NCBI GenBank assembly: GCA_013792135.1
Contig: VMSP01000119.1
Location: 1-42,117, forward strand
DNA from: Desulfocapsa sp.
GTDB taxonomy: Bacteria > Desulfobacterota > Desulfobulbia > Desulfobulbales > Desulfocapsaceae
DNA: 42,117 bases
Direction: 5' to 3'
Both the position numbers and the translations under genes were made by a program. This document shows, in pieces, positions 4,742-18,245 of this stretch. Under the pieces are notes generated by a model. The model was not told the origin of the DNA and searched no databases. It saw nothing but the letters and a program-made list of their open reading frames with translations. Each line of letters begins with the position of its first letter. The stretch's first letter is position 1.

Positions 4742-4891
4742 ATGTTGTGGACAATTGCCGTGATACTGATAATTCTGTGGGCGTTGGGACTGGTCAGCAG
4801 TTACACGATGGGAGGGTTCATTCATATCCTGCTGGTACTTGCTGTTATTGTTGTGCTGCTCAACCTCTTTCAGGGGCGGCGGCGTGGGTAG
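4742..4891 (+). CDS. lmo0937-family small membrane protein
   Basis: This 49-residue protein has two hydrophobic segments, [17 protein letters not shown] and the later [15 protein letters not shown], joined by SSYTMGG and ending in RRRG. It matches the lmo0937/DUF5670 type of tiny two-span membrane protein, often found next to CsbD and other stress genes. The ATG at 4742 is set by AAGGAGG 5 nt upstream. The function is unknown. Its 3' end abuts a minus-strand lactate dehydrogenase fragment. Confidence 0.7.
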
Positions 4892-4902
4892 CCTTCTGGA
4901 AA

Positions 4903-5328
4903 GGGCAAACCGGCGATATTGGCCTGGCTCCAAACCGGCACTTCACTGTCGCCGTGCTCACCAATTATATAGGCATGAACATTGTGGGGGTCGACCCGGC
5001 AATGTCTGCTGAGCAGGAATCTGAAGCGCGCCGTATCCAGAGTGGTCCCCGATCCAATGACCCGAGTCATGGGATAACCGGAAACTTTGAGGGCAACATA
5101 CGTCAAGATATCGACGGGATTGGATATGATCAGCAAAGTTCCCGGTTCGTGCGCCGCGATCTTGGGAATGATATCTTTGGAAATATCCGTGTTCTTGCTA
5201 ACGAGATCCAGCCGGGTCTCACCCTGCTTCTGAGCGGCGCCCGTGGTAACGACAACAATGTCGGCGCCCTTGCAGTCCGAGTAGTTTCCTGCGAAGATTC
5301 TTGCCGGTTGGATAAAGGACAGGCTTAG
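4903..5328 (-). pseudogene. ldh: L-lactate dehydrogenase internal fragment
   Basis: About 142 residues match the middle of L-lactate dehydrogenase: [61 protein letters not shown] and the catalytic-His segment [20 protein letters not shown]. The first 70 or so residues, with the NAD-binding GxGxxG, and the C-terminal third are missing. The frame runs into unrelated sequence on both sides. It lies between the lmo0937-like gene and the permease gene, both of which look intact, so it is a displaced gene fragment that cannot make an active enzyme. The well-kept internal frame suggests a fairly recent event. Confidence 0.85.
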
Positions 5329-5366
5329 CATTCCTCTCAAGGTTTTCTTCATGATGTTTGCCCGGC

Positions 5367-6581
5367 TCAGTTGCTCACAGACTGCTTTTCGCGCAAGGTT
5401 CTTCTGGCCAGATGTTGCAGGTCTTCGTCCGTCACCGTGGGGAGAAATCGTTTTCGATAAAGCTCGTCGTGCAGAATATCTACAATGGAAACCAGCGGGG
5501 CCGCAACCAGAACACCCAGCACGCCGAAAGCAGCCACGCATAAGAGCATCGAAAAAATCACCGCCACCGGATGCAATTTCATCCCTCGCGCCATGATGAA
5601 AGGGGTAATCACATTATTTTCCAAAGCCTGGACCGCGATGTAGGCTAACAATACCCACATCGGGGTCATGCCTCCGATGCCGAGAGCGAGCAACAGTGCA
5701 GGTACTGCGCCGAGGGTCGGACCAAGATATGGAACAGCTTCCATGATTCCTGCTATCAACCCCAGAACTAGCGAGTCCATGAATCCGAAGATCGGCAACA
5801 TGATCAAAAAAACTAGCAGGCCGATCGTCACCATCCCCACCAGCGTTGTCCCTGCCCAATTTGGCGCGAAATTTCCAATGCGCTGCATGATGATCAGTGC
5901 CCTTCCATGATGGCGCTCGGGCACCAATGAAAACATTGCCCCAAGGATCGGGCGGGGATTCATGAGCGTAAAGCATACGCCGAAAAAAACCGTCACCAAA
6001 ACGACCAGCATCTGCCCCGCGTTGAACGCCATCGCCGTGAAGCTACCGACCACGCCCTGTAACATCTCGCTCAACCTGGAACGGATAGATTCCGACGCCT
6101 TGGCAGTTTCAGGCGGAGCCGACTTCGTGGTTTTGGCCGCTACTACAGGCCGGCCCTCCGACGCCTCGATCTTGGCGATTTCTGTGGTGACTTCCGCCTG
6201 GAGTTTTTTTTCGGAAAGAACGACCTTTTGCTCCATTTTAATCAGAGGTTTCTGGAACCGTTCCCAGTAACCTGGCAACTCTGCAGAGAGGTTTATGATC
6301 GAGATCTTCAACGGCCCGAAAAAAGCCCCACCTGTCAGAACAATGAAAATGACCAAGGCCGCCACCAAAAGCCCCGCCGCGCCTTTTCTTCCACCGGTCA
6401 AGGTTCGTATCCGGGAGATCATGGGATTCACTGCGAGCGAAATCAGTAGAATAAGTAGAAACGACAAGAGGATGGGGGCCAGCAGTGAAAACGTCTTGAT
6501 GAAAGCAATCAACGATGCTCCCAGGATTATGTAGAAAGATATCGAGTGGTTATTCACCTCTGGCTCGGGGTTGCTTGGCAT
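5367..6581 (-). CDS. AI-2E family transporter (PerM/YdiK type)
   Basis: This 404-residue inner membrane protein has several spans: two near the start ([34 protein letters not shown]), one near residue 80, and a C-terminal block with [20 protein letters not shown], which contains the family's E-x-x-P-Y-x-G-P motif. Members are linked to autoinducer-2 export or Na+/H+ exchange; the substrate here is unknown. An insertion of about 50 polar residues with [15 protein letters not shown] lies in the periplasmic or cytoplasmic loop around residues 145-195. I chose the second Met (6581) because GGGAG lies 4-5 nt upstream. The Met at 6596 lacks a site. Confidence 0.85.
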
Positions 6582-6656
6582 GGCATTTTCTCCCATTGTT
6601 AACTTGTTGTCAGGAAACCGGACATTGAAGTCCTGTGGCCCAGTCCTTGGTAAGCG

Positions 6657-6875
6657 TCAATTAAGCCCCAGTATCTTCTGGTCTAAGCTCAAGTCAGCCA
6701 TAGTAAGCTTCATGGGCAGCAATTCTCTGTAATCATCCACGGATGAAGCAAACGGGAGCTTCTCAAAAAGGTAGCGAAGATATTTATCAGGAGAAAGCTT
6801 GACTCCCTGAGTCAGGAATTCGTTACGTATAAACAGTAGACTTCTGAGTTGTTCCGTCAATAATAATTTAAACAA
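6657..6875 (-). pseudogene. IS66-type transposase C-terminal remnant
   Basis: The 72-residue frame contains SPDKYLRYLFEKLPFASSVD followed by DYRELLP, the typical IS66 transposase C-terminus (PxxYLRYLFEKLP...DYxxLLP). The other 400 or so residues of the transposase are gone. It directly adjoins an IS110 remnant. The 6597-7868 interval holds only such mobile-element pieces and the ung-tail copy. Confidence 0.7.
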
Positions 6876-7150
6876 ATTCCAACAAAGGAGAATTTGTTCT
6901 CTTTAATGTTTGTATGTATTTAATCTCATCATAGGGAGTCCTGTTCTTCCAACAGCAGTACATGATTCTGATCCACTTAAAAGCAAGAGCTCTAATGGCT
7001 GTATGATGGGATTTGCCTCGTTCTCGTAGTATTTCATAATATGCTTGAGCCCATATTAATGACCTGCGTAAGGAATTTGCAAACTCATGAAAAGTTTGTA
7101 GTAAAAATTTCGGACAGGCATGGCAGCGTATGACCATTTTTGATTGACCG
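6868..7150 (-). pseudogene. IS110-type transposase C-terminal remnant
   Basis: The frame reads SLRRSLIWAQAYYEILRERG, KSHHTAIRALAFKWIRIMYC and then CWKNRTPYDE. This matches the C-terminal region of IS110/IS116/IS902 transposases (kGKxHhxAlRALArkwirilyxxWkxxtpYDe). The N-terminal DEDD nuclease half is missing. Its upstream part runs into unrelated sequence near 7150, where an IS3 fragment on the opposite strand begins. Confidence 0.6.
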
Positions 7151-7157
7151 CTAGCCT

Positions 7158-7493
7158 TTGATCCTTCCTTCTGATCGCGGGAGCCAAGATTGCTCCCATG
7201 CCTTTGCAAGAGTACTTAAACAGTTTGATATGAAGCCTTCTATGAGGCGCAAGGGTAACTGTTATGATAATGCCCCGAGGGAAAGCTTCTGGGGGACGTT
7301 GAAAACCGAGATGGTCCATCACAGAAAGTATGCCACAAGAAAAGAAGCTGAGGTTGAGATCCGTGAGTATATAGAAATATTCTACAACCGCCAACGTATA
7401 AAGAAAAGGTTAGGTTTTTGTTCTCCGGCTGCTTTTGAGAGAAAATATCTTATTGAAAGGAACGTGGCAGAGAGGTTTGGTTTCCACTATTGA
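7158..7493 (+). pseudogene. IS3-family transposase (OrfB) C-terminal fragment
   Basis: The frame starts inside the integrase core (PSDRGSQDCSHAFARVLKQF), continues through KGNCYDNAPRESFWGTLKTE, which holds the last catalytic Glu, and ends with YIEIFYNRQRIKKRLGF and SPAAFERKYL. This is the last third of an IS3/IS150-type OrfB; the usual motif is HSDRGSQY. The rest of the element and its ends are missing at the junction with the IS110 piece. Confidence 0.85.
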
Positions 7494-7663
7494 CGACCTC
7501 AGGCTTAGCGCCTGAACACATCATAAGCTTCAGGTTTACATCAGATTTTGAGTTGCCCTTCGGATCATGATAGGCATTACTCTCTCGCCTATCAAATTTT
7601 ATTTTTAATGTGTTCGTAGAGATTGCATCTTGGGCACGCCCCACCCCAATTTGCTTTTCCGAT

Positions 7664-7832
7664 GGGTTGTTGTTCCCTTAATTCAGTACAGGCAGTTCCC
7701 AGTTAATCAGTGATTTTGCCTGATCCTGCAGATAGGCATTGGCTTTGGAAAAATGTTTATTACCAATTACCAATAAAAACCACGATGCGCAGATAAGGGG
7801 GATGGGTGAAGCTACTGCAGGACCAGGTGACG
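7664..7832 (-). pseudogene. Degenerate second copy of the ung 3' end
   Basis: This stretch is a diverged direct copy of 10498-10658, the 3' part of ung and its downstream sequence. The minus-strand frame still reads [18 protein letters not shown] and INWELPVLN against [18 protein letters not shown] and IDWELPLLS in ung. A small insertion (ATTACCAA-like) and scattered changes destroy the rest. The two copies flank the SWIM and Cys-rich genes. Confidence 0.85.
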
Positions 7833-7868
7833 TGCATCCGGCAAAAGGTCTGGAATTCAATCAGACAA

Positions 7869-9809
7869 TCAATCAATGATCCGTTTATTCTCTAATAAAT
7901 CCAGAACTTCCATCAGCCTCCGTTTTGCCTTGTGCGTGGTTCGCAGGATCTGGAGGAGAGTCCGCCACTGTTCGAGCCGTCCTGTTTTCTGGTAGATATT
8001 GTGCATCTTGCGCAGATAGCCGGCAGCCACTTCATATGCCTTGGGTTTTACTAGATCGATCTGCCCCTCGGCCAGTTTTTTCCAGATGGCAAGTGAAATG
8101 TCAGGATGGGTCCCGGCAACTGCCGCAGCCACCTCTCTCCCCTTGCCGATTCCCCACCGGATCGTTTTCTGCTGCGTCTGGTAAAGCTGGACAACATCGT
8201 CGAATCGCTTTTCAAGGATGGCAATTTCAATGAGATTGCCCAGGTCGGGAAAGTCCCGACGGAACCTTTTGTCAGACCTGACAGCGACCTCAGGACTGGG
8301 CAAAGGCCATGGCTGTCCGGAGCTTCCCGCATCAGTCATGTCAGGACGCTGGCCGCTTTCCAGAAATGAGAGGGCTTCGGCACGAACAGTCGGCCAGCAA
8401 CCAATCGCTTCAGCCGCCTTTTCTAATTCCAGATAATTGGCGGGGGTTGGATTATTGAAAAAATCCTGGGCCCGGTAGGCAGCAACCAGATCAAATTTAT
8501 TTTCCTGCCAGGCAAGCTCGCGAAGTTTTTTCTGCAGACTAGCGGCGATGCCGGGGGCATTCTCTACCGTTTTTTGAAATCCCTTGACACACCACTCCCT
8601 TGCCTTGTCATAATTGCTGCTCTGTAAATATGTATCAACGAGTCGTTCATAGCATTGAGTCAAATCCGCCTCCCTTTCGAGCAGAGGAATAACTTTTTTC
8701 CGCTGACCACTTCGTTCAAGGGCCTCAATCAGCCAGTTCATCACCCTTTCCCGATGATATCCGCTTGAAAAGTTGTCCGGCATGTGAGCAGGCATAGTGT
8801 TAAGCCTTTCCTGGAGGCTGACTGCAACCTCAGCCCAGTCTGTCCGGCCATATATCTTATTTCGGATGAATTGTTCACAGGAATCGCTGATGGAATACTG
8901 GTCTTCAAGAAAGATATCGATCATCCAGAGCAACTGTTCCGGCCTGGACAGCGAAGAGACCTCTACCGCCTGAAAGACAATTTCCATGCAGTCCCCGATT
9001 TCATAAGCCACGTCACCATCGTCATGGGATTGTTCCACCTGCTCGTTGCCCCTTTGCCAGAGATCGCAGCCAAGTTCCACCACAATATCGGCATGCCCTT
9101 CTTTCAACAAGGCGGCGAACTGCTCCTTGATATGAGAATAGTCGGGGCTATTCCCCTCGTCATTCCAGTGGTTATTCCAGGCAGGCTCACCGGTCACCGC
9201 TTTGATTTCCTTCCGCAGGGCAATGGCAAGCTTATCAATTCTGCCGCTTCGCAGCTGATCGTCTTCCAGAATCTTCCGTTTGACCTCAGGATGACGGGCC
9301 GCAAGATCAGTCAACAGCACGATCAGCTCCTCCTTGCTTTTCTCACCCAGGATTCCGGCCACTGCCGGATTCTTTCCACCATCTGATCCTGACGACCCAA
9401 CCGTGACCTCTTGGTCATCCGGATCATCCTCATCCAGGAACTCATCGTCGTCATCGGTTTCATCAAAAACGGCCAGATACAGGTCTCCCCGCTTATCCAC
9501 CAGAGGGAGCTTCCTCCCTGCTTTTTCCTGTTCCAAGGCGGCCAGGACAACGGCCACGGCATGTTTGCAGGGCCCCCAATCGTATGGGCAGGAGCAGAAC
9601 CAGTCGAGTTCACCATCTTCATCAGCCTCAACATTGGTGGCGTAATCCTCAGTGCCTGCAACCCATGCAATCAGCCCGCCGCTTTCGGTCCTGGCCAAGT
9701 CGGAGACATTCTTGATGTATGTCTTGCCACGGCCCATGATGGTACTGCCGGCCCACTGTCGCAGATCCTCCCAGGTCAGACTAAGTAATGATTCATTCAT
9801 CGAATTCAT
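7869..9809 (-). CDS. SWIM zinc-finger protein
   Basis: This large 646-residue cytoplasmic protein has an N-terminal SWIM zinc finger at about residues 70-86: FCSC (C72, C74) followed by GPCKH (C81, H83). SWIM domains bind DNA or protein; bacterial ones occur alone or with SNF2 helicases. Downstream is an acidic low-complexity stretch (residues 115-132, rich in D and E) and then about 450 residues of helical repeats resembling TPR units (for example SNYDKAREWCVKGFQKTVEN, KRFDDVVQLYQTQQKTIRW). It looks like a scaffold protein with a metal-binding head. GGAGG lies 4 nt before the first ATG. It follows the Cys-rich gene by 44 bp. The molecular role is unknown. Confidence 0.8.
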   Translation of the reverse strand: MNSMNESLLSLTWEDLRQWAGSTIMGRGKTYIKNVSDLARTESGGLIAWVAGTEDYATNVEADEDGELDWFCSCPYDWGPCKHAVAVVLAALEQEKAGRKLPLVDKRGDLYLAVFDETDDDDEFLDEDDPDDQEVTVGSSGSDGGKNPAVAGILGEKSKEELIVLLTDLAARHPEVKRKILEDDQLRSGRIDKLAIALRKEIKAVTGEPAWNNHWNDEGNSPDYSHIKEQFAALLKEGHADIVVELGCDLWQRGNEQVEQSHDDGDVAYEIGDCMEIVFQAVEVSSLSRPEQLLWMIDIFLEDQYSISDSCEQFIRNKIYGRTDWAEVAVSLQERLNTMPAHMPDNFSSGYHRERVMNWLIEALERSGQRKKVIPLLEREADLTQCYERLVDTYLQSSNYDKAREWCVKGFQKTVENAPGIAASLQKKLRELAWQENKFDLVAAYRAQDFFNNPTPANYLELEKAAEAIGCWPTVRAEALSFLESGQRPDMTDAGSSGQPWPLPSPEVAVRSDKRFRRDFPDLGNLIEIAILEKRFDDVVQLYQTQQKTIRWGIGKGREVAAAVAGTHPDISLAIWKKLAEGQIDLVKPKAYEVAAGYLRKMHNIYQKTGRLEQWRTLLQILRTTHKAKRRLMEVLDLLENKRIID

Positions 9810-9853
9810 CCGGCCTCCATAAAGGAATTCAATTTTCTACGCAACAAAAGTCA

Positions 9854-10390
9854 CTACTTTGGGTATATCTGTGTAAAATGGCTGACAAATTCAAGATAAC
9901 TGCTGCCGCCAATGGTTCTTCTCTGAATGGCCCGGTACACAGCGGCCAACACCTTAACCAGCTTCTCGGTAGGGACGTGCTCCAGTTCTTGACTGACAGC
10001 CTGGGAAAGCAACTGGTCCCCTGACGCTATGGCCAGTTCCGCCATTGGCTGCTTGTCATCCTTGAAATGATATTTGTCGATCATCCTTTCCACGAGGCGG
10101 GCCGCAGTCCCGTCATTGAAGTTTTTACTATCGGCTGCCCATACCATGCAGAGAAGTTTTTCGATATTTTCAGCAATTCCTTCAAGCTCAGGGGATTTAG
10201 CCATCTCCTCGGTGCTGAAATAGGGCACACTCCGGTAGTTCCGACTGGCCAAAACGGGACTGATAAAAGAACAGCCTTCGCATTTTTCCTGTTCACGAGT
10301 CTCACCGCAGCAGAGGCTACAGATAAAAGTCCCGGTACTCTTGCATTTCCTTTTCCCTTTCCGGGAATCACATACTGTGCATTTCGCCAT
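9854..10390 (-). CDS. Cys-rich zinc-binding protein of unknown function
   Basis: This 178-residue protein has a dense N-terminal Cys cluster: C4, C7, C16, C24, C27, C28, C37, C40 (CTVC, KC, CSLCC, KCEGC). It probably binds two zinc ions in a treble-clef or B-box-like fold. The rest (residues 55-178) is helical, with ELEGIAENIEKLLCMVW and ASGDQLLSQAVSQELEHVPT. I recognise no named family beyond the zinc-ribbon look. It sits 64 bp after ung and 44 bp before the SWIM gene, so the two metal-binding proteins are probably made together. Confidence 0.65.
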   Translation of the reverse strand: MAKCTVCDSRKGKRKCKSTGTFICSLCCGETREQEKCEGCSFISPVLASRNYRSVPYFSTEEMAKSPELEGIAENIEKLLCMVWAADSKNFNDGTAARLVERMIDKYHFKDDKQPMAELAIASGDQLLSQAVSQELEHVPTEKLVKVLAAVYRAIQRRTIGGSSYLEFVSHFTQIYPK

Positions 10391-14340: not shown

Positions 14341-15513
14341 CTATTTATCCAATTTAATTTTCTTCATGGTTTTGACTTCTTCTCTGTTGAGAGAAACGAC
14401 AAGACCCTTATCACTTATGTATGTAACTTCCTTATTTGTGATAGTTACATTATCTGTGGAAATCCGTCCCCCTGAAAAAAATTCTATCTCATAAAAATAT
14501 TTTTTTTCCTCTCCTTTCTGACCCGCCTTTATATTTTTAAGCTGCTCAATTTTCTTTTCACTAAGAACTTCTTTCATGGCTCTTGTGACCTGCTCATCTG
14601 TAAATCTGCCATTTTTTTGTTCCGTCTGCTTAATTGGCATGCTGATTTTAGTACTTCTTGCGTCGCGATACTCCTGATCGTTAGGGAGAAATCCCCTTAT
14701 CTGGGATGGTAAAATTGAATAAAAGCATGTACTCGATTCGGGGTACAATAAAAAATAGCCCGCTGCAACAAACAAAAGGCCTACGAAAGCCCATGCTGTT
14801 TTTTGCAGATTTCCGCCTTTTTTCTTCTCTGGTTGACTTTCAAATATCGCATATGATCTCATGCTGTTAAACAATTCTTTGCCATCCAATATCAAAATAT
14901 TGTTAGCCTTTGCAAAGTCTATTGCATCTTTAGTGAACTCACCTGAAGTAACTACAAATCCACCTGTTGCTCCGACTCCAACCATAACTCCCAGCAGCTC
15001 CCGGACAACATTCACTCCGACCTTGTATGCTTTCCAATGCTTACATTGAATAAGATATTTTTCCATGCCTTTCGTAGCAATCAGATCAACGCCCCCATCT
15101 GCACCAGATTTTGTTTCTTCCACGCTGAACTGTCGACGCCGGAAGTATTCTCCTACCAAATATTCAAAATCTTGCCATGACATATTACCTAAAGAATTAT
15201 GAGAAACGCTGCGAGATGTTTTGTCATATAACTTTGTTCTTTTAAAATTCAGAATTACAGAAGCCATTGATCCCAACAAAAATGCTACGGGGATTACAAT
15301 CTGACCAAAGAACGCAAGAACGTGCAGCAAACCGGGGAGTACATTCTTAAAGATCCCATCTATCCCTGATGCTGTAACTGGCGGAAGCTCTTTTCCTGCA
15401 TACGAGTGTAAAAACAAGAAGGAGACCAAGGCTAAAGAGACACCTACCCACCAGGGGAATTTTGATGTTATATCAGCAATGTCCTCAAAAATACTGTTTG
15501 CTCTACGGGCCAT
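14341..15513 (-). CDS. Membrane-anchored Mrr-type restriction endonuclease
   Basis: The 390 residues have three parts. The N-terminus has two membrane regions (about 20-38 and 60-88). A cytoplasmic Mrr_cat PD-(D/E)xK nuclease domain (110-215) has MSWQDFEYLVGEYFRRRQFS, the catalytic Asp143 in GADGGVDLIA and Gln156-x-Lys158 in LIQCKHW, and ends FVVTSGEFTKDAIDFA. A third membrane span (238-256) precedes a charged C-terminal domain with ISTDNVTITNKEV. Mrr enzymes cut modified or foreign DNA, so a membrane location suggests action at DNA entry, though some membrane Mrr-like proteins have other roles. The catalytic residues are all present. It lies downstream of the methyltransferase/DUF3883 pair on the same strand. 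Confidence 0.8.
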   Translation of the reverse strand: MARRANSIFEDIADITSKFPWWVGVSLALVSFLFLHSYAGKELPPVTASGIDGIFKNVLPGLLHVLAFFGQIVIPVAFLLGSMASVILNFKRTKLYDKTSRSVSHNSLGNMSWQDFEYLVGEYFRRRQFSVEETKSGADGGVDLIATKGMEKYLIQCKHWKAYKVGVNVVRELLGVMVGVGATGGFVVTSGEFTKDAIDFAKANNILILDGKELFNSMRSYAIFESQPEKKKGGNLQKTAWAFVGLLFVAAGYFLLYPESSTCFYSILPSQIRGFLPNDQEYRDARSTKISMPIKQTEQKNGRFTDEQVTRAMKEVLSEKKIEQLKNIKAGQKGEEKKYFYEIEFFSGGRISTDNVTITNKEVTYISDKGLVVSLNREEVKTMKKIKLDK

Positions 15514-15561
15514 AACACTTTTGTACCAAATTATTGGTTGTCTAATAAGGGGTTTAGTAAT

Positions 15562-15597
15562 TTCTGTGAAGCACGCATTTTAGCGTGTTTCACAGAA
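15562..15597. terminator. 15-bp hairpin between the nuclease genes
   Basis: TTCTGTGAAGCACGC (15562-15576) pairs with GCGTGTTTCACAGAA (15583-15597), with one wobble and a 6-nt loop. It lies 90 bp after the DUF3883 gene stop and before the Mrr-like gene. It probably ends or attenuates the first transcript, but it lacks a strong T-run on the minus strand. Confidence 0.5.
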
Positions 15598-15684
15598 TGA
15601 TGGCATAATTTAAGGATACCTTGTTGGAATTATGGTATCAATTGCTTAACGTGGCAGGACCCAGTTCAGTTGAGTTTCACCGGC

Positions 15685-16986
15685 TCAAAAAATTGCTTTG
15701 TAGGTATTGGCTACAAGATGCACACTTCGGCTAATATCACCTGGCAAAATAAATAATTTGGGTACTCGCTTAAAATTGAACACTCGGTATAAACTATATA
15801 TCTCTGAATTTTCTTTTGAGAAAACCACTTCATTTTCAGAAATATAAAATGGTTGGTATTTCCCACAGTTTGAAGTTTTCACCTCTATAAATAAATCTTT
15901 TTCATTTTCCGGGTTAAAAGACCGTATATCATAACCTGTGCCATCACCCCTCTCTTTGCTTGTCCACTCTACCTCTTTGGCAAGATCGTCACGGCCCAAA
16001 AAAGTGAGGCGGTTTCTTTCGAATTGGAGCGCAAATTCCTCGCCCCGTTCACCCATCCGTCGATTGCCGATCTCTCTTTCTGCAAAATTATAAAAGCGAG
16101 GTGTGAACTCTCGCGTCTCGGCTTGAGGTGGTAAAATGTTCTTTACAGGGGCAGATTCGAGCACATCCCTCCAGACGAACTCGTTGAACTGTGGCGGTTC
16201 CTGTTCGATAAATGAATCCACTTGTTTTTCAAGTACATGCCTGTCTTCGACAAGACGCATGAGTATGACATCTTTTAATTGCTGTTGGTAATTAAACGCG
16301 GGTTTGTATCCGGAGATATATGGGTATCCCAGTTCAATCATGATGGCGCTGATATTCTGGTGTTTGAATTCTATTGAGCCATCGGAACGGTTGTTCAACT
16401 TCGTTTGCAATTCTCGCCTGTGCTGGCTCTTGTTGTACCTTTCTCCCCTCAACTCAAGCTCCATCATTGCTAAATAATCCGCTACAACCGCTTCACACTC
16501 CAGCCAGTCCCATGCATCACCTAGGTTTAACAACGTGCGTTGCGAATCGAAATTGAGATTTCCCAAGAGAGAAGCTTTTAAATATTCTCGAACAACCGGA
16601 CTGTGCAATAACTGGAACAGCGCTTCATCCAAATAGGCGTAAGCAACATTATTATTGAGCTCGCCTGGGCCGCTCACTGTGGATAATCTTTGGTAAGCTA
16701 CGGCTCGCCCTGGTTTAGGTTGATGATGCCAAAAATTTTCACTTCGAAGATGGAAAAATGGGAGGTGTGGATTATCGCGATCGGTTTCAGTGCGATATTT
16801 ATTGAAGTTGTGGCTGAAGCTCAGTCGTAAGTTCTGGTCAAAGAAAATCCGATTATTATTAATTGTTTTATTGGCGATCAGATCCATTACCGCCAACAGC
16901 ATACAAACTTTATGGGGGCTGACGCCCCCTTTCTGGCGGTTCATGTTCAGTGCATTAAATTTATCGGCGTAAAACTCTAAGCTCAT
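15685..16986 (-). CDS. Restriction-like nuclease: McrA-N-like head plus DUF3883
   Basis: This 433-residue protein appears to have three modules. Residues 1-110 (GGVSPHKVCMLLAVMDLI, RIFFDQNLRLSFSHNF, PFFHLRSENFWHH) resemble the N-terminal head of ScoMcrA-like modification-dependent endonucleases. Residues 165-245 (AVVADYLAMMELELRGERYN, GSIEFKHQNISAIMIELGYP, GYKPAFNYQ) form a conserved domain that often accompanies such nucleases. Residues 300-410 are a DUF3883 PD-(D/E)xK nuclease with Asp353 (GTGYDI) and Glu368-x-Lys370 (FIEVKTS). It should cut DNA, perhaps modified DNA. Its ATG overlaps the methyltransferase stop as ATGA, so the two are translationally coupled. The region is AT-rich compared with its flanks, as is common in defence islands. 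Confidence 0.75.
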   Translation of the reverse strand: MSLEFYADKFNALNMNRQKGGVSPHKVCMLLAVMDLIANKTINNNRIFFDQNLRLSFSHNFNKYRTETDRDNPHLPFFHLRSENFWHHQPKPGRAVAYQRLSTVSGPGELNNNVAYAYLDEALFQLLHSPVVREYLKASLLGNLNFDSQRTLLNLGDAWDWLECEAVVADYLAMMELELRGERYNKSQHRRELQTKLNNRSDGSIEFKHQNISAIMIELGYPYISGYKPAFNYQQQLKDVILMRLVEDRHVLEKQVDSFIEQEPPQFNEFVWRDVLESAPVKNILPPQAETREFTPRFYNFAEREIGNRRMGERGEEFALQFERNRLTFLGRDDLAKEVEWTSKERGDGTGYDIRSFNPENEKDLFIEVKTSNCGKYQPFYISENEVVFSKENSEIYSLYRVFNFKRVPKLFILPGDISRSVHLVANTYKAIF

Positions 16987-17579
16987 CTGAACACTCTTTT
17001 CTCAACTATGATGGTCTGCCATGTAACTCCTTCTCTTTTCAGCACATCTTCCAGAGTATTAGTAACTTCGACCTGCAAAGATTTAGTCTCGGCAAATTGA
17101 ACAATCTCATCAGCCGGAACCTGATAAAATTCTCTTCCTTCAGAGTCCGGTCCTTGGCGGAGAGAGACAACCAGCAGAGAATCCTTAGCCATTAACCCGG
17201 TAAGTGTTTCCATGGAATCAATGCGCTGTTGATAAGGAAGATGCATCAAAACCCCACTCACCAGAATTAAAGAAAAACTGTGCTGATACGTTTGAAGCTT
17301 AGCCAAAATCGGCAAACAATCATTGATCCATAAAACCGGATAAATCCCAGTAGTTTTTTGGCCCAACTCAAGCAATACCGTCGCAGGTTCAACCACAATT
17401 ACTTCCCATCCCCTTTTGGCCAACCAAGCAGCATCGCGACCGGAACCCCCACCAACGTCCAAGGCCAAACCGGGATTTTGGGGTAAATGCCTGAGCCAAC
17501 TTGCATGAACCTTGTCCGGGTCCAAACTTTGATATTTATCAAATAACTGTTTGGCGTTATGGTTGTAGTAATTCAACAT
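16983..17579 (-). CDS. SAM-dependent methyltransferase coupled to the DUF3883 nuclease
   Basis: This 198-residue class I methyltransferase has motif I LALDVGGGSGRDAAWLA (residues 38-54), an acidic motif II (VIVVEPA), then SLILVSGVLMHLPYQQR and LLVVSLRQGPDSEGREFYQV. It lacks the (D/N)PPY motif of adenine- or N4-cytosine DNA methyltransferases and the PC motif of C5 enzymes. It resembles TehB/UbiE-like small-molecule or protein methyltransferases, so classical DNA modification is not supported. Its stop overlaps the nuclease start, so the two make a fixed pair. The substrate is unknown. The ribosome binding site is weak (TGAGAA). Confidence 0.8.
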   Translation of the reverse strand: MLNYYNHNAKQLFDKYQSLDPDKVHASWLRHLPQNPGLALDVGGGSGRDAAWLAKRGWEVIVVEPATVLLELGQKTTGIYPVLWINDCLPILAKLQTYQHSFSLILVSGVLMHLPYQQRIDSMETLTGLMAKDSLLVVSLRQGPDSEGREFYQVPADEIVQFAETKSLQVEVTNTLEDVLKREGVTWQTIIVEKRVFR

Positions 17580-17855: not shown

Positions 17856-18125
17856 CTATCGTCGGTCCTCATCGCCAAAAGTATAAAAGGCGGCAGGTTT
17901 GTCTGAATTTGCAATATGCATTTTTTGCATATTGCTTTCTTCGTCCAATTCCCCTTCCTTGAAGACATTCCGGATATGACGGGAGATAACAGACTGATCT
18001 CTCTGGAAAAGTTCCACCATTTGTGCCTGAGTCAACCAGACCGTCTCCTTCCCGAGGTGAACTTCAAGCAGGCTTTGCCCGCCCTCGGTCTGATAAATGA
18101 CTATTTCACCGTATTCACTTTGCAT
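17856..18125 (-). pseudogene. RhuM-family N-terminal fragment A
   Basis: The 89-residue frame starts MQSEYGEIVIYQTEGGQ, runs through VWLTQAQMVELFQRDQSVIS, RHIRNVFKEGELDEESN and IANSDKPAAFYTFGDEDRR, then stops where RhuM would continue with YNLDVIISVGYR. Normal length is about 330 residues. The ATG lies one base after the stop of the hsdR remnant, the arrangement expected when rhuM follows hsdR in one operon. Fragment B takes over directly after it, so the two come from different rhuM alleles or copies. Confidence 0.75.
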
Positions 18126-18126
18126 A

Positions 18127-18245
18127 TTACGCCGCCAAAGCCTCATTCCATTCTTCAACAATCATATTCAACTCATCGCCAAAAAACTGATGCACCATGT
18201 AAATCCACCTTCCTGGGCCAAGGGAGCATAATCAAAATCACCTCT
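18127..18245 (-). pseudogene. 3' end of a type I restriction subunit gene (hsdR-like)
   Basis: The last 23 codons read MVHQFFGDELNMIVEEWNEA then LAA and stop. This is the typical C-terminus of HsdR-type restriction subunits (hQ.FGdeLn.iieELNEaLaA). A frameshift earlier, GDFDYAPLAQEGGF continues the match upstream to about 18245. The remaining roughly 900 residues of the helicase-nuclease are absent. It lies between fic and the RhuM pieces, which fits a decayed type I restriction locus. Confidence 0.65.

What the first reader, a model, noticed from the sequence alone, without database searches (positions are those of the whole stretch)
15685..17579. Coupled methyltransferase and McrA-N-like/DUF3883 nuclease, a possible defence system
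The two genes overlap by 4 nt (ATGA). The nuclease joins a McrA-like N-terminal head, a conserved middle domain with SIEFKHQNISA, and a DUF3883 nuclease with all catalytic residues. The methyltransferase is small and lacks DNA-methyltransferase motifs, so this is not an ordinary restriction-modification pair. It sits among defence gene remnants. I know of no experimentally described system with this exact make-up.
Basis: partly seen in the sequence, partly recalled or inferred. Interest (0 to 1): 0.65.

Follow-up and report, generated by a model that had tools for sequence, protein, structure and literature searches.

The report
Sulfur-DNA-sensing nuclease with methyltransferase partner
This is a pair of overlapping bacterial genes: a nuclease whose front end belongs to a family that recognises sulfur-marked (phosphorothioated) DNA, and a small methyltransferase that in related bacteria is swapped for a nucleotide-hydrolysing (HIT) enzyme, which suggests a two-part defence that cuts sulfur-marked foreign DNA and deals with the sulfur-bearing debris.

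Summary
The pair is real: a 198-aa methyltransferase (MTase) and a 433-aa nuclease overlap by ATGA. The "McrA-like head" is a DNA sulfur-binding domain (SBD). It is 50% identical to PDB 8h0l (SBD of Hga with phosphorothioated DNA), keeps the sulfur-pocket residues, and its AlphaFold2 model has the same fold (Z 22.3). The rest is the PADLOC candidate PDC-S36 with an intact NOV_C/PD-(D/E)XK nuclease. The 8h0l domain comes from the Hahella ganghwensis orthologue, whose gene is also preceded, with a 4-nt overlap, by the same MTase.

In 17 SBD-NOV_C loci the gene immediately upstream is this MTase in 7 and a HIT hydrolase in 7. Two lack both, and these two have lost the pocket histidine. The tree forces repeated swaps. 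The MTase family is rare (42 hits in 249 genomes), and 13 of 30 fetched copies sit beside an SBD gene; some are fused to NUDIX or HNH domains. It has no DNA-MTase motif.

Best reading: a phosphorothioate-dependent (type IV-like) restriction nuclease with an interchangeable nucleotide/sulfur-processing partner. HINT1, a HIT enzyme, is reported to turn dGMPS into dGMP and H2S. The partner's role is inferred. Against it: 18 SBD loci from plasmid, viral and E. coli records have neither partner.

The parts
16983..17579 (-). Small class I SAM-dependent methyltransferase, 198 aa; partner gene
   Evidence: Methyltransf_25 E 1e-6; PADLOC mad2 C-terminal part E 1.9e-10; AF2 model pLDDT 91.7, small-molecule MTase fold; no DNA-MTase motif IV
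16983..16986 (-). 4-nt overlap ATGA of the two genes
   Evidence: the same overlap in L041, L042, L043, L049, L051
16525..16986 (-). Nuclease residues 1-154: DNA sulfur-binding domain (SBD), pocket residues H25, K26, L75, P76, H79
   Evidence: phmmer to 8h0l_A E 4e-43; Foldseek E 8.2e-14, 50% id; VIA Z 22.3, rmsd 2.2 over 143 residues; pocket columns
16057..16521 (-). Nuclease residues 156-310: middle domain of PDC-S36 with (S/A)xE(F/L)KHQNISA
   Evidence: PADLOC PDC-S36 matches residues 156-432, E 2.1e-95; invariant columns in A4
15748..16044 (-). Nuclease residues 315-413: NOV_C, PD-(D/E)XK nuclease with D353, E368-V-K370
   Evidence: PF13020 E 3.1e-21; catalytic columns 36 of 36; weak fold matches to Hjc resolvase and I-Ssp6803I, Z 7.3
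14341..15513 (-). Membrane-anchored (by eye) Mrr_cat protein, possible third gene of the unit
   Evidence: PF04471 E 2e-33; same family beside the SBD gene in L041, L043, L051, L009; none in 64 core-only PDC-S36 loci
17856..18161 (-). Truncated RhuM-family (PDC-S05) gene, defence-island remnant
   Evidence: PADLOC PDC-S05 E 1.1e-31; 331-336 aa frames of like sequence (by eye) in L041 and L042
18302..19450 (-). SoFic-type Fic protein, neighbour
   Evidence: PADLOC SoFic E 3.3e-121; Fic_N and Fic Pfam matches

Best explanation
The 433-aa protein is a phosphorothioate (PT)-sensing restriction nuclease. Its SBD docks a PT sulfur in incoming DNA, the middle domain couples or dimerises, and the NOV_C PD-(D/E)XK domain cuts. 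The host genome has no detectable DndC, so PT probably marks DNA as foreign. The co-transcribed MTase does not mark DNA. It is one of a set of exchangeable small-molecule enzymes (MTase, HIT, NUDIX-MTase) that act on nucleotide or sulfur products linked to PT-DNA destruction. Shown by comparison: SBD identity and pocket, intact catalytic site, gene overlap, partner exchange, MTase fold and absence of DNA-MTase motifs. Inferred: PT-dependent cutting by this protein, defence activity, and what the MTase methylates.
For: SBD: 8h0l E 4e-43, same fold Z 22.3. The crystallised chain as printed lies letter for letter in the L049 protein of Hahella ganghwensis, which has the same SBD-middle-NOV_C make-up and the same MTase upstream at a 4-nt overlap. 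Pocket: K26, P76, H79 in 16 of 16 and H25 in 14 of 16 full-length rows, corresponding to sulfur-pocket residues reported for ScoMcrA (PMC6224610, passages). Catalysis: E316, E323, D353, E368, K370 in 36 of 36. Partner slot in 17 SBD-NOV_C loci: MTase 7, HIT 7, HIT further downstream 1, none 2, against 4 of 64 core-only PDC-S36 loci (Fisher p 1e-9). Other SBD loci of the phylum: 12 of 31 against 0 of 19 HNH-only loci (p 0.0015). The tree forces at least 3 label changes for MTase and 2 for HIT. The two partnerless loci, L052 and L053, are the two with altered H25. No DndC match in 5 of 5 genomes searched, own genome included. HINT1 (HIT) acts on dGMPS with H2S release (PMC8775712, abstract and introduction).
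Against: No activity data. SBD loci from plasmids, viral contigs and E. coli/Klebsiella records have neither MTase nor HIT (0 of 18), so the partner is not needed for PT-dependent restriction in general; outside the SBD-NOV_C branch the association was seen only within the window's phylum. PDC-S36 cores without an SBD sometimes have the same partners (4 of 64: L059, L068, L096, L120), and the MTase also sits beside ResIII/PLD helicase-nucleases and HNH_4 nucleases, so its substrate need not be PT-linked. Fold search does not single out a sulfur methyltransferase: TPMT has the top TM-scores among the 50 rows of Foldseek (0.75-0.79) but is not among the 50 rows of the second aligner. Only 34 of the 64 control loci have the full 6 kb on both sides.
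Confidence: 0.6

Rival explanations
1. The partners (MTase, HIT, NUDIX) are regulators in a signalling or toxin-antitoxin arrangement: they destroy or modify a nucleotide signal that would otherwise switch the nuclease on, so infection that disturbs them frees the nuclease.
For: Partners are nucleotide-type enzymes in the first gene position; the MTase also accompanies nucleases without an SBD; PADLOC matches the L054 HIT protein to ThsC2 and the L193 NUDIX part to PDC-S07.
Against: The nuclease carries a DNA-modification reader and no nucleotide-sensor domain was found by Pfam; the two loci that lost the pocket histidine also lack the partner, which hints at a tie to sulfur reading.
Confidence: 0.2
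2. Ordinary restriction-modification pair: the MTase methylates host DNA bases and protects it from the nuclease.
For: Overlapping MTase and restriction-type nuclease genes.
Against: No [NDS]PP[YFW] or PC motif, 198 aa, no further domain found; best fold and family matches are small-molecule MTases; replaced by a HIT hydrolase in 7 of 17 loci.
Confidence: 0.06
3. The SBD of this branch reads something other than phosphorothioate, and PT is incidental.
For: L052 and L053 have lost the pocket histidine yet keep the nuclease.
Against: The parent of the domain solved with phosphorothioated DNA (8h0l) is a full-length orthologue, L049, about 48% identical to the window protein; pocket residues are kept in the window protein.
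Confidence: 0.1
4. Chance neighbours in a defence island; the MTase is a passenger.
For: A truncated RhuM gene, a Fic gene and (by eye) an IS-type transposase nearby show turnover.
Against: 4-nt overlap kept in 6 of 7 MTase loci across two phyla; the MTase family is rare (42 hits in 249 genomes) yet beside an SBD gene in 13 of 30 fetched loci; MTase-HNH and MTase-HIT fusions next to PDC-S36.
Confidence: 0.03

Closest known systems
Hga protein of Hahella ganghwensis (parent of PDB 8h0l, SBDHga1; locus L049)
   Same: Same three-part architecture, 48% identical over residues 1-433, same MTase gene immediately upstream with a 4-nt overlap; SBD solved with phosphorothioated DNA
   Different: Nothing found in the held library on its NOV_C nuclease or its MTase neighbour (searches; the paper behind the structure is recalled only, and the DOI that I tried was not held)
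SBD-HNH phosphorothioate-dependent restriction enzymes (ScoMcrA, SprMcrA, EcoWI)
   Same: SBD fold and pocket; likely PT-as-foreign logic; no DndC found in the host, and PTDRs are rarely beside dnd genes (PMC7461809, sections read)
   Different: NOV_C PD-(D/E)XK nuclease instead of HNH; [quoted passage not shown] a partner gene is present
PADLOC PDC-S36 (candidate single-gene defence family)
   Same: Residues 156-432, E 2.1e-95
   Different: In most of the 64 core-only loci read it stands alone at about 280 aa, in some with another head; here fused to an SBD and paired
MADS protein mad2 (PADLOC)
   Same: MTase domain related to the C-terminal part of mad2, E 1.9e-10 (window) to 5.1e-18 (L123)
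   Different: mad2 model is 492 positions long and belongs to a multi-gene system (recalled); of the five window proteins scanned none matched another mad model
HINT1/HIT phosphoramidase family
   Same: Occupies the same upstream slot in 7 of 17 loci; HINT1 acts on dGMPS with H2S release (PMC8775712)
   Different: Not present in the window's operon; activity of these bacterial HIT proteins untested

Membership tests
SBD-type phosphorothioate-dependent restriction endonuclease | DNA sulfur-binding domain fold | tested here: met
   8h0l E 4e-43; Z 22.3, rmsd 2.2, 143 aligned
SBD-type phosphorothioate-dependent restriction endonuclease | Sulfur-pocket residues (ScoMcrA H116, R/K117, P165) | tested here: met
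   H25, K26, P76 by alignment and conservation; residue roles from PMC6224610 (passages); the residue-to-residue match with ScoMcrA is my reading of the motifs
SBD-type phosphorothioate-dependent restriction endonuclease | HNH nuclease C-terminal to the SBD | tested here: not met
   Pfam finds NOV_C only; so not an SBD-HNH enzyme, but works like one by inference
SBD-type phosphorothioate-dependent restriction endonuclease | PT-dependent DNA cleavage | not testable with these tools
   needs protein and PT-DNA
SBD-type phosphorothioate-dependent restriction endonuclease | Host lacks its own PT writer | tested here: inconclusive
   No DndC (TIGR03183) match in 5 of 5 genomes, own included; one PAPS_reductase match below cut-off in own genome; Ssp genes not searched by a model of their own; draft genome
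PADLOC PDC-S36 | Match to the PDC-S36 model | tested here: met
   E 2.1e-95 over model positions 4-278 of 280
Type II restriction-modification | DNA methyltransferase with catalytic motif IV or PC motif | tested here: not met
   no [NDS]PP[YFW], no PC; small-molecule MTase families and folds
MADS | Other mad genes beside the mad2-like MTase | tested here: not met
   five window proteins scanned, no other mad model
Thiopurine/tellurite S/Te-methyltransferase (TPMT, TehB) | Curated family score | tested here: not met
   TPMT 20 bits against 26, TehB 17.8 against 20.4; NCBIfam TehB 26 against 218

The most novel reading that the evidence does not exclude
Phosphorothioate-dependent restriction carries its own sulfur-nucleotide sanitation module. 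When PT-marked invader DNA is shredded, deoxynucleoside phosphorothioates are released that could be recharged and built into the host's own DNA, turning the cell into a target of its own PT-sensing nuclease. The operon partner removes them: HIT by desulfuration to dNMP plus H2S, NUDIX by hydrolysing the alpha-thio triphosphates, and the MTase by S-methylating the thiophosphate (or the released sulfide). The three are interchangeable solutions to one autoimmunity problem. This would be a new layer of self-protection, acting on the nucleotide pool rather than by masking sites in DNA.
Probability: 0.3. Interest if true: 0.82.

Novelty: new variant of a known kind. Interest (0 to 1): 0.62.

Why it matters
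PT-dependent restriction enzymes are described as SBD 'almost exclusively' with HNH domains (PMC7470945). Here is a distinct SBD-NOV_C branch with a dedicated, exchangeable partner gene, in Desulfobacterota and Gammaproteobacteria. If the partner handles sulfur-bearing nucleotides, it answers how a cell survives destroying PT-DNA without marking its own genome, and it gives a first substrate class for a rare, nuclease-associated methyltransferase family also found in other defence contexts (mad2). The claim can be tested directly with purified HIT or MTase and dNMPS.

Tried and rejected
Plain R-M pair: rejected on motifs, fold and replacement by HIT. Generic McrA head: rejected, because the plasmid PDC-S36 protein read has a different head while the window protein has an SBD. 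S-methyltransferase by fold alone: not decided (TPMT best by TM-score in the rows, not among the 50 rows). NF045808 as a search model finds mostly HNH domains, so it served as a source of HNH-only controls rather than of SBDs. Viral contigs gave only 3 SBD loci, none with a partner. DndC was not found in the own genome or four relatives.

Rows left out before counting: SBD fragments or partial loci L005 and L168 (both with the MTase beside them), L131/L167, L165, L170 and L173 (no partner); L169 (no SBD match at the cut-off); the large SBD-NERD-kinase type or long-frame proteins L006, L012, L018, L019, L163, L164, L166, L154 and L171 (no partner at the cut-off). Of the 31 other SBD loci counted, 28 have SBD and HNH in one frame; L025 (with a NUDIX-MTase gene), L028 and L030 (no partner) have no HNH match, so the strict SBD-HNH figure is 11 of 28. 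Broken rows kept: L029 (MTase broken), L174 (nuclease with a stop). The pocket-versus-partner match (p 0.007) was noticed after the fact on 17 related loci. NUDIX genes were also met beside one SBD-HNH locus without MTase (L121) and in one HNH-only control (L146).

Literature: searches listed no paper in the held library on an SBD-NOV_C enzyme, PDC-S36, or HIT/NUDIX/MTase partners of SBD nucleases, judged by titles, abstracts' beginnings and term counts; most subscription papers are not held. Read: PMC7461809 (abstract, introduction, neighbourhood section, part 1 of the discussion), PMC6224610, PMC7470945, PMC9646914 and PMC9521924 (passages), PMC10853773 (passages, outline and abstract), PMC8775712 (part 1 of 6: abstract, introduction, start of results).
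Full report
WHAT IS THERE. On the minus strand of the window a 198-aa methyltransferase gene (17579-16983) overlaps a 433-aa nuclease gene (16986-15685) by ATGA. Downstream on the same strand, after about 170 nt, lies an Mrr_cat protein with membrane segments by eye (15513-14341). Upstream are a truncated RhuM (PDC-S05) gene, a SoFic-type Fic gene and, by eye, an IS-type transposase. The own genome (4.2 Mb, 186 contigs) holds one copy. In the same class, 30 of 257 genomes match the nuclease query somewhere, but only four show it full length (own, G176 94%, G178 93%, G098 72%; in G163 the match runs into a contig end), and in each of the four the MTase gene precedes it.

THE NUCLEASE. Residues 1-154 match PDB 8h0l, 'SBDHga1', at E 4e-43. 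An AlphaFold2 model from 36 aligned relatives (mean pLDDT 87.8) superposes on that domain with Z 22.3, rmsd 2.2 over 143 residues, 50% identity, and on the sulfur-binding domains of ScoMcrA and SprMcrA with Z about 12 (Foldseek E 8.2e-14 for 8h0l). The pocket residues reported for ScoMcrA (H116, R or K117, P165; PMC6224610, passages) correspond, by my reading of the motifs, to H25, K26 and P76. K26, P76 and H79 are kept in 16 of 16 and H25 in 14 of 16 full-length rows. Residues 156-432 are PADLOC's candidate PDC-S36 (E 2.1e-95), of which 315-413 are NOV_C (E 3.1e-21); E316, E323, D353, E368 and K370 are invariant in 36 of 36. Weak structural matches of this part are to Holliday resolvase Hjc and I-Ssp6803I (Z 7.3) and SPARDA chains (Z 6.5-8.1), as expected of a PD-(D/E)XK domain. 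[quoted passage not shown] this branch departs from that.

One full-length member, L049 from Hahella ganghwensis, contains the crystallised 8h0l chain as printed letter for letter. So sulfur binding has been shown structurally for an orthologue 48% identical over residues 1-433, and its gene has the same MTase directly upstream with a 4-nt overlap.

THE PARTNER SLOT. Profile scans of all open frames in the loci show what precedes the nuclease in the 17 SBD-NOV_C loci (window plus 16): the MTase in 7 (window, L041, L042, L043, L049, L050, L051) and a HIT (histidine triad) hydrolase in 7 (L044-L048, L054, L055; PF01230 E 1.5e-23 for L054). L057, whose nuclease frame is broken, has a HIT gene 1.7-1.9 kb downstream; L052 and L053 have neither. 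The 4-nt overlap is kept in 6 of the 7 MTase loci and 4 of the 7 HIT loci, taking the start that corresponds to the window's. Among the 64 core-only loci (up to 6 kb of flank; 34 with the full length), 4 have one of these partners (L059 MTase; L068, L096, L120 HIT): Fisher p 1e-9. In a tree of 16 of the full-length proteins with six cores, the MTase and HIT labels are interleaved; supported branches force at least 3 and 2 changes. L052 and L053, the two without any partner, are exactly the two whose pocket histidine is changed (D and E; p 0.007 with L057 counted as partnered, post hoc).

Other SBD genes of the window's phylum show the same partners: of 31 loci (1.5 kb flanks or less), 8 have the MTase family beside them (two as NUDIX-MTase genes, one broken) and 4 the HIT family, against 0 of 19 HNH-only loci (p 0.0015). 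Of the 31, 28 have SBD and HNH in one frame, of which 11 have a partner. Result against: 18 SBD loci from plasmid, viral-contig and enterobacterial records have neither MTase nor HIT nor NUDIX at the cut-offs used. In E. coli, 246 of 5426 genomes match the EcoWI-like query locus and 46 cover at least 80% of it, that is, including a convergent 5'-nucleotidase gene (PF06189); in three other E. coli loci and one Klebsiella locus read, no annotated nucleotide enzyme lies next to it.

THE METHYLTRANSFERASE. Across 17 family members, Y5, the D41xGxGSGRD49 loop, G57, H113, R149 and W187 are invariant. It has no DNA-MTase motif, matches only generic or small-molecule models, and its model (pLDDT 91.7) resembles many small-molecule MTases with Z of about 19-21; thiopurine methyltransferase has the highest TM-scores among Foldseek's 50 rows (0.75-0.79) but is not among the 50 rows of the second aligner, so fold does not settle the substrate. 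The family is rare: 42 hits (E <= 1e-20) in 37 of 249 genomes of the class. Of 30 loci fetched, 13 have an SBD gene next to the MTase; these overlap with the loci counted above. Others sit beside ResIII helicases, some with PLD domains (L188, L190, L199; also downstream in L183), or HNH_4-type nucleases (L184, L200 by Pfam; L191, L202 by eye). In six the MTase domain starts at residue 131-176, behind a NUDIX domain (L187, L190, L193, L203, L204, L205; Pfam for L193). Two fusions tie the parts together: in L059 a PDC-S36 core is followed, at a 4-nt overlap, by an MTase-HNH_4 protein, and in L120 a divergent MTase domain is fused to a HIT domain 16 nt upstream of a PDC-S36 core. The family is also related to the C-terminal part of mad2 of MADS (E 5.1e-18 for L123).

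MECHANISM. The SBD reads a PT sulfur and the NOV_C domain cuts. PT is probably a mark of foreign DNA here, since no DndC is found in the own genome or four relatives, in line with PT-dependent restriction enzymes being rarely linked to dnd genes (PMC7461809). These steps rest on homology. For the partner, the common denominator of HIT, NUDIX and small MTase is small-molecule, mostly nucleotide, chemistry. HINT1, a HIT enzyme, acts on dGMPS with release of H2S (PMC8775712, abstract and introduction). Digestion of PT-DNA should release just such thiophosphates. I therefore infer that the partner clears or modifies sulfur-bearing nucleotides (or sulfide). This is the bold part: p about 0.3. A signalling role is the main rival.

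THIRD GENE. The Mrr_cat family of the window lies beside the SBD gene in the window, L041, L043 and L051 (4 of 17) and in L009 beside an SBD-HNH/HIT pair, more weakly near L193, and in none of the 64 core-only loci; it may be a loosely attached third component.

VERDICT. Nothing on such partners was found in the held library, which lacks most subscription papers, including the one recalled behind 8h0l.

Noticed in passing
L224 (G129:C1:4334000-4352000), 4769-10139 and 14674-16701: An SBD-like N-terminus fused to NERD and kinase domains (MAD6-like, 1521 aa), next to a PAPS-reductase-like gene and a TIGR04096 dnd_rel_methyl gene: an SBD inside what looks like a sulfur-modification defence cluster; L012 also has SBD, NERD and kinase beside a gene of like sequence.
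   Followed up: partly
L223 6530-12083: A compact row of PAPS-reductase-like gene, SBD-HNH gene, the MTase and a 1056-aa ResIII helicase: the MTase beside a possible sulfur writer.
   Followed up: partly
L120 5127-5981 and just upstream: MTase-HIT fusion 16 nt upstream of a PDC-S36 nuclease and downstream of a frame that looks HNH-like by eye.
   Followed up: partly
L031 5722-6858, L032, L033: 1251 of 72,556 plasmid records match the nuclease query, none over 80% or more of it; the 40 listed match from about residue 152 on, so without the SBD. In two of the three loci read an aac(3)-IId resistance gene lies close by.
   Followed up: no
L218 2435-4353: EcoWI-like SBD-HNH gene with a convergent PF06189 5'-nucleotidase; 46 of 246 matching E. 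coli genomes cover at least 80% of this two-gene query.
   Followed up: partly
window 17856-18161: RhuM-family gene is truncated in the window; 331-336 aa frames of like sequence stand near the pair in L041 and L042.
   Followed up: no
L210 3448-4299, L211 3448-4302, L214 3448-4308, L215 3379-4239: Cyanobacterial plasmid SBD-HNH genes are followed at a 4-nt overlap by a 283-286 aa protein; the one scanned (L210) has no Pfam match, so another possible partner family.
   Followed up: no
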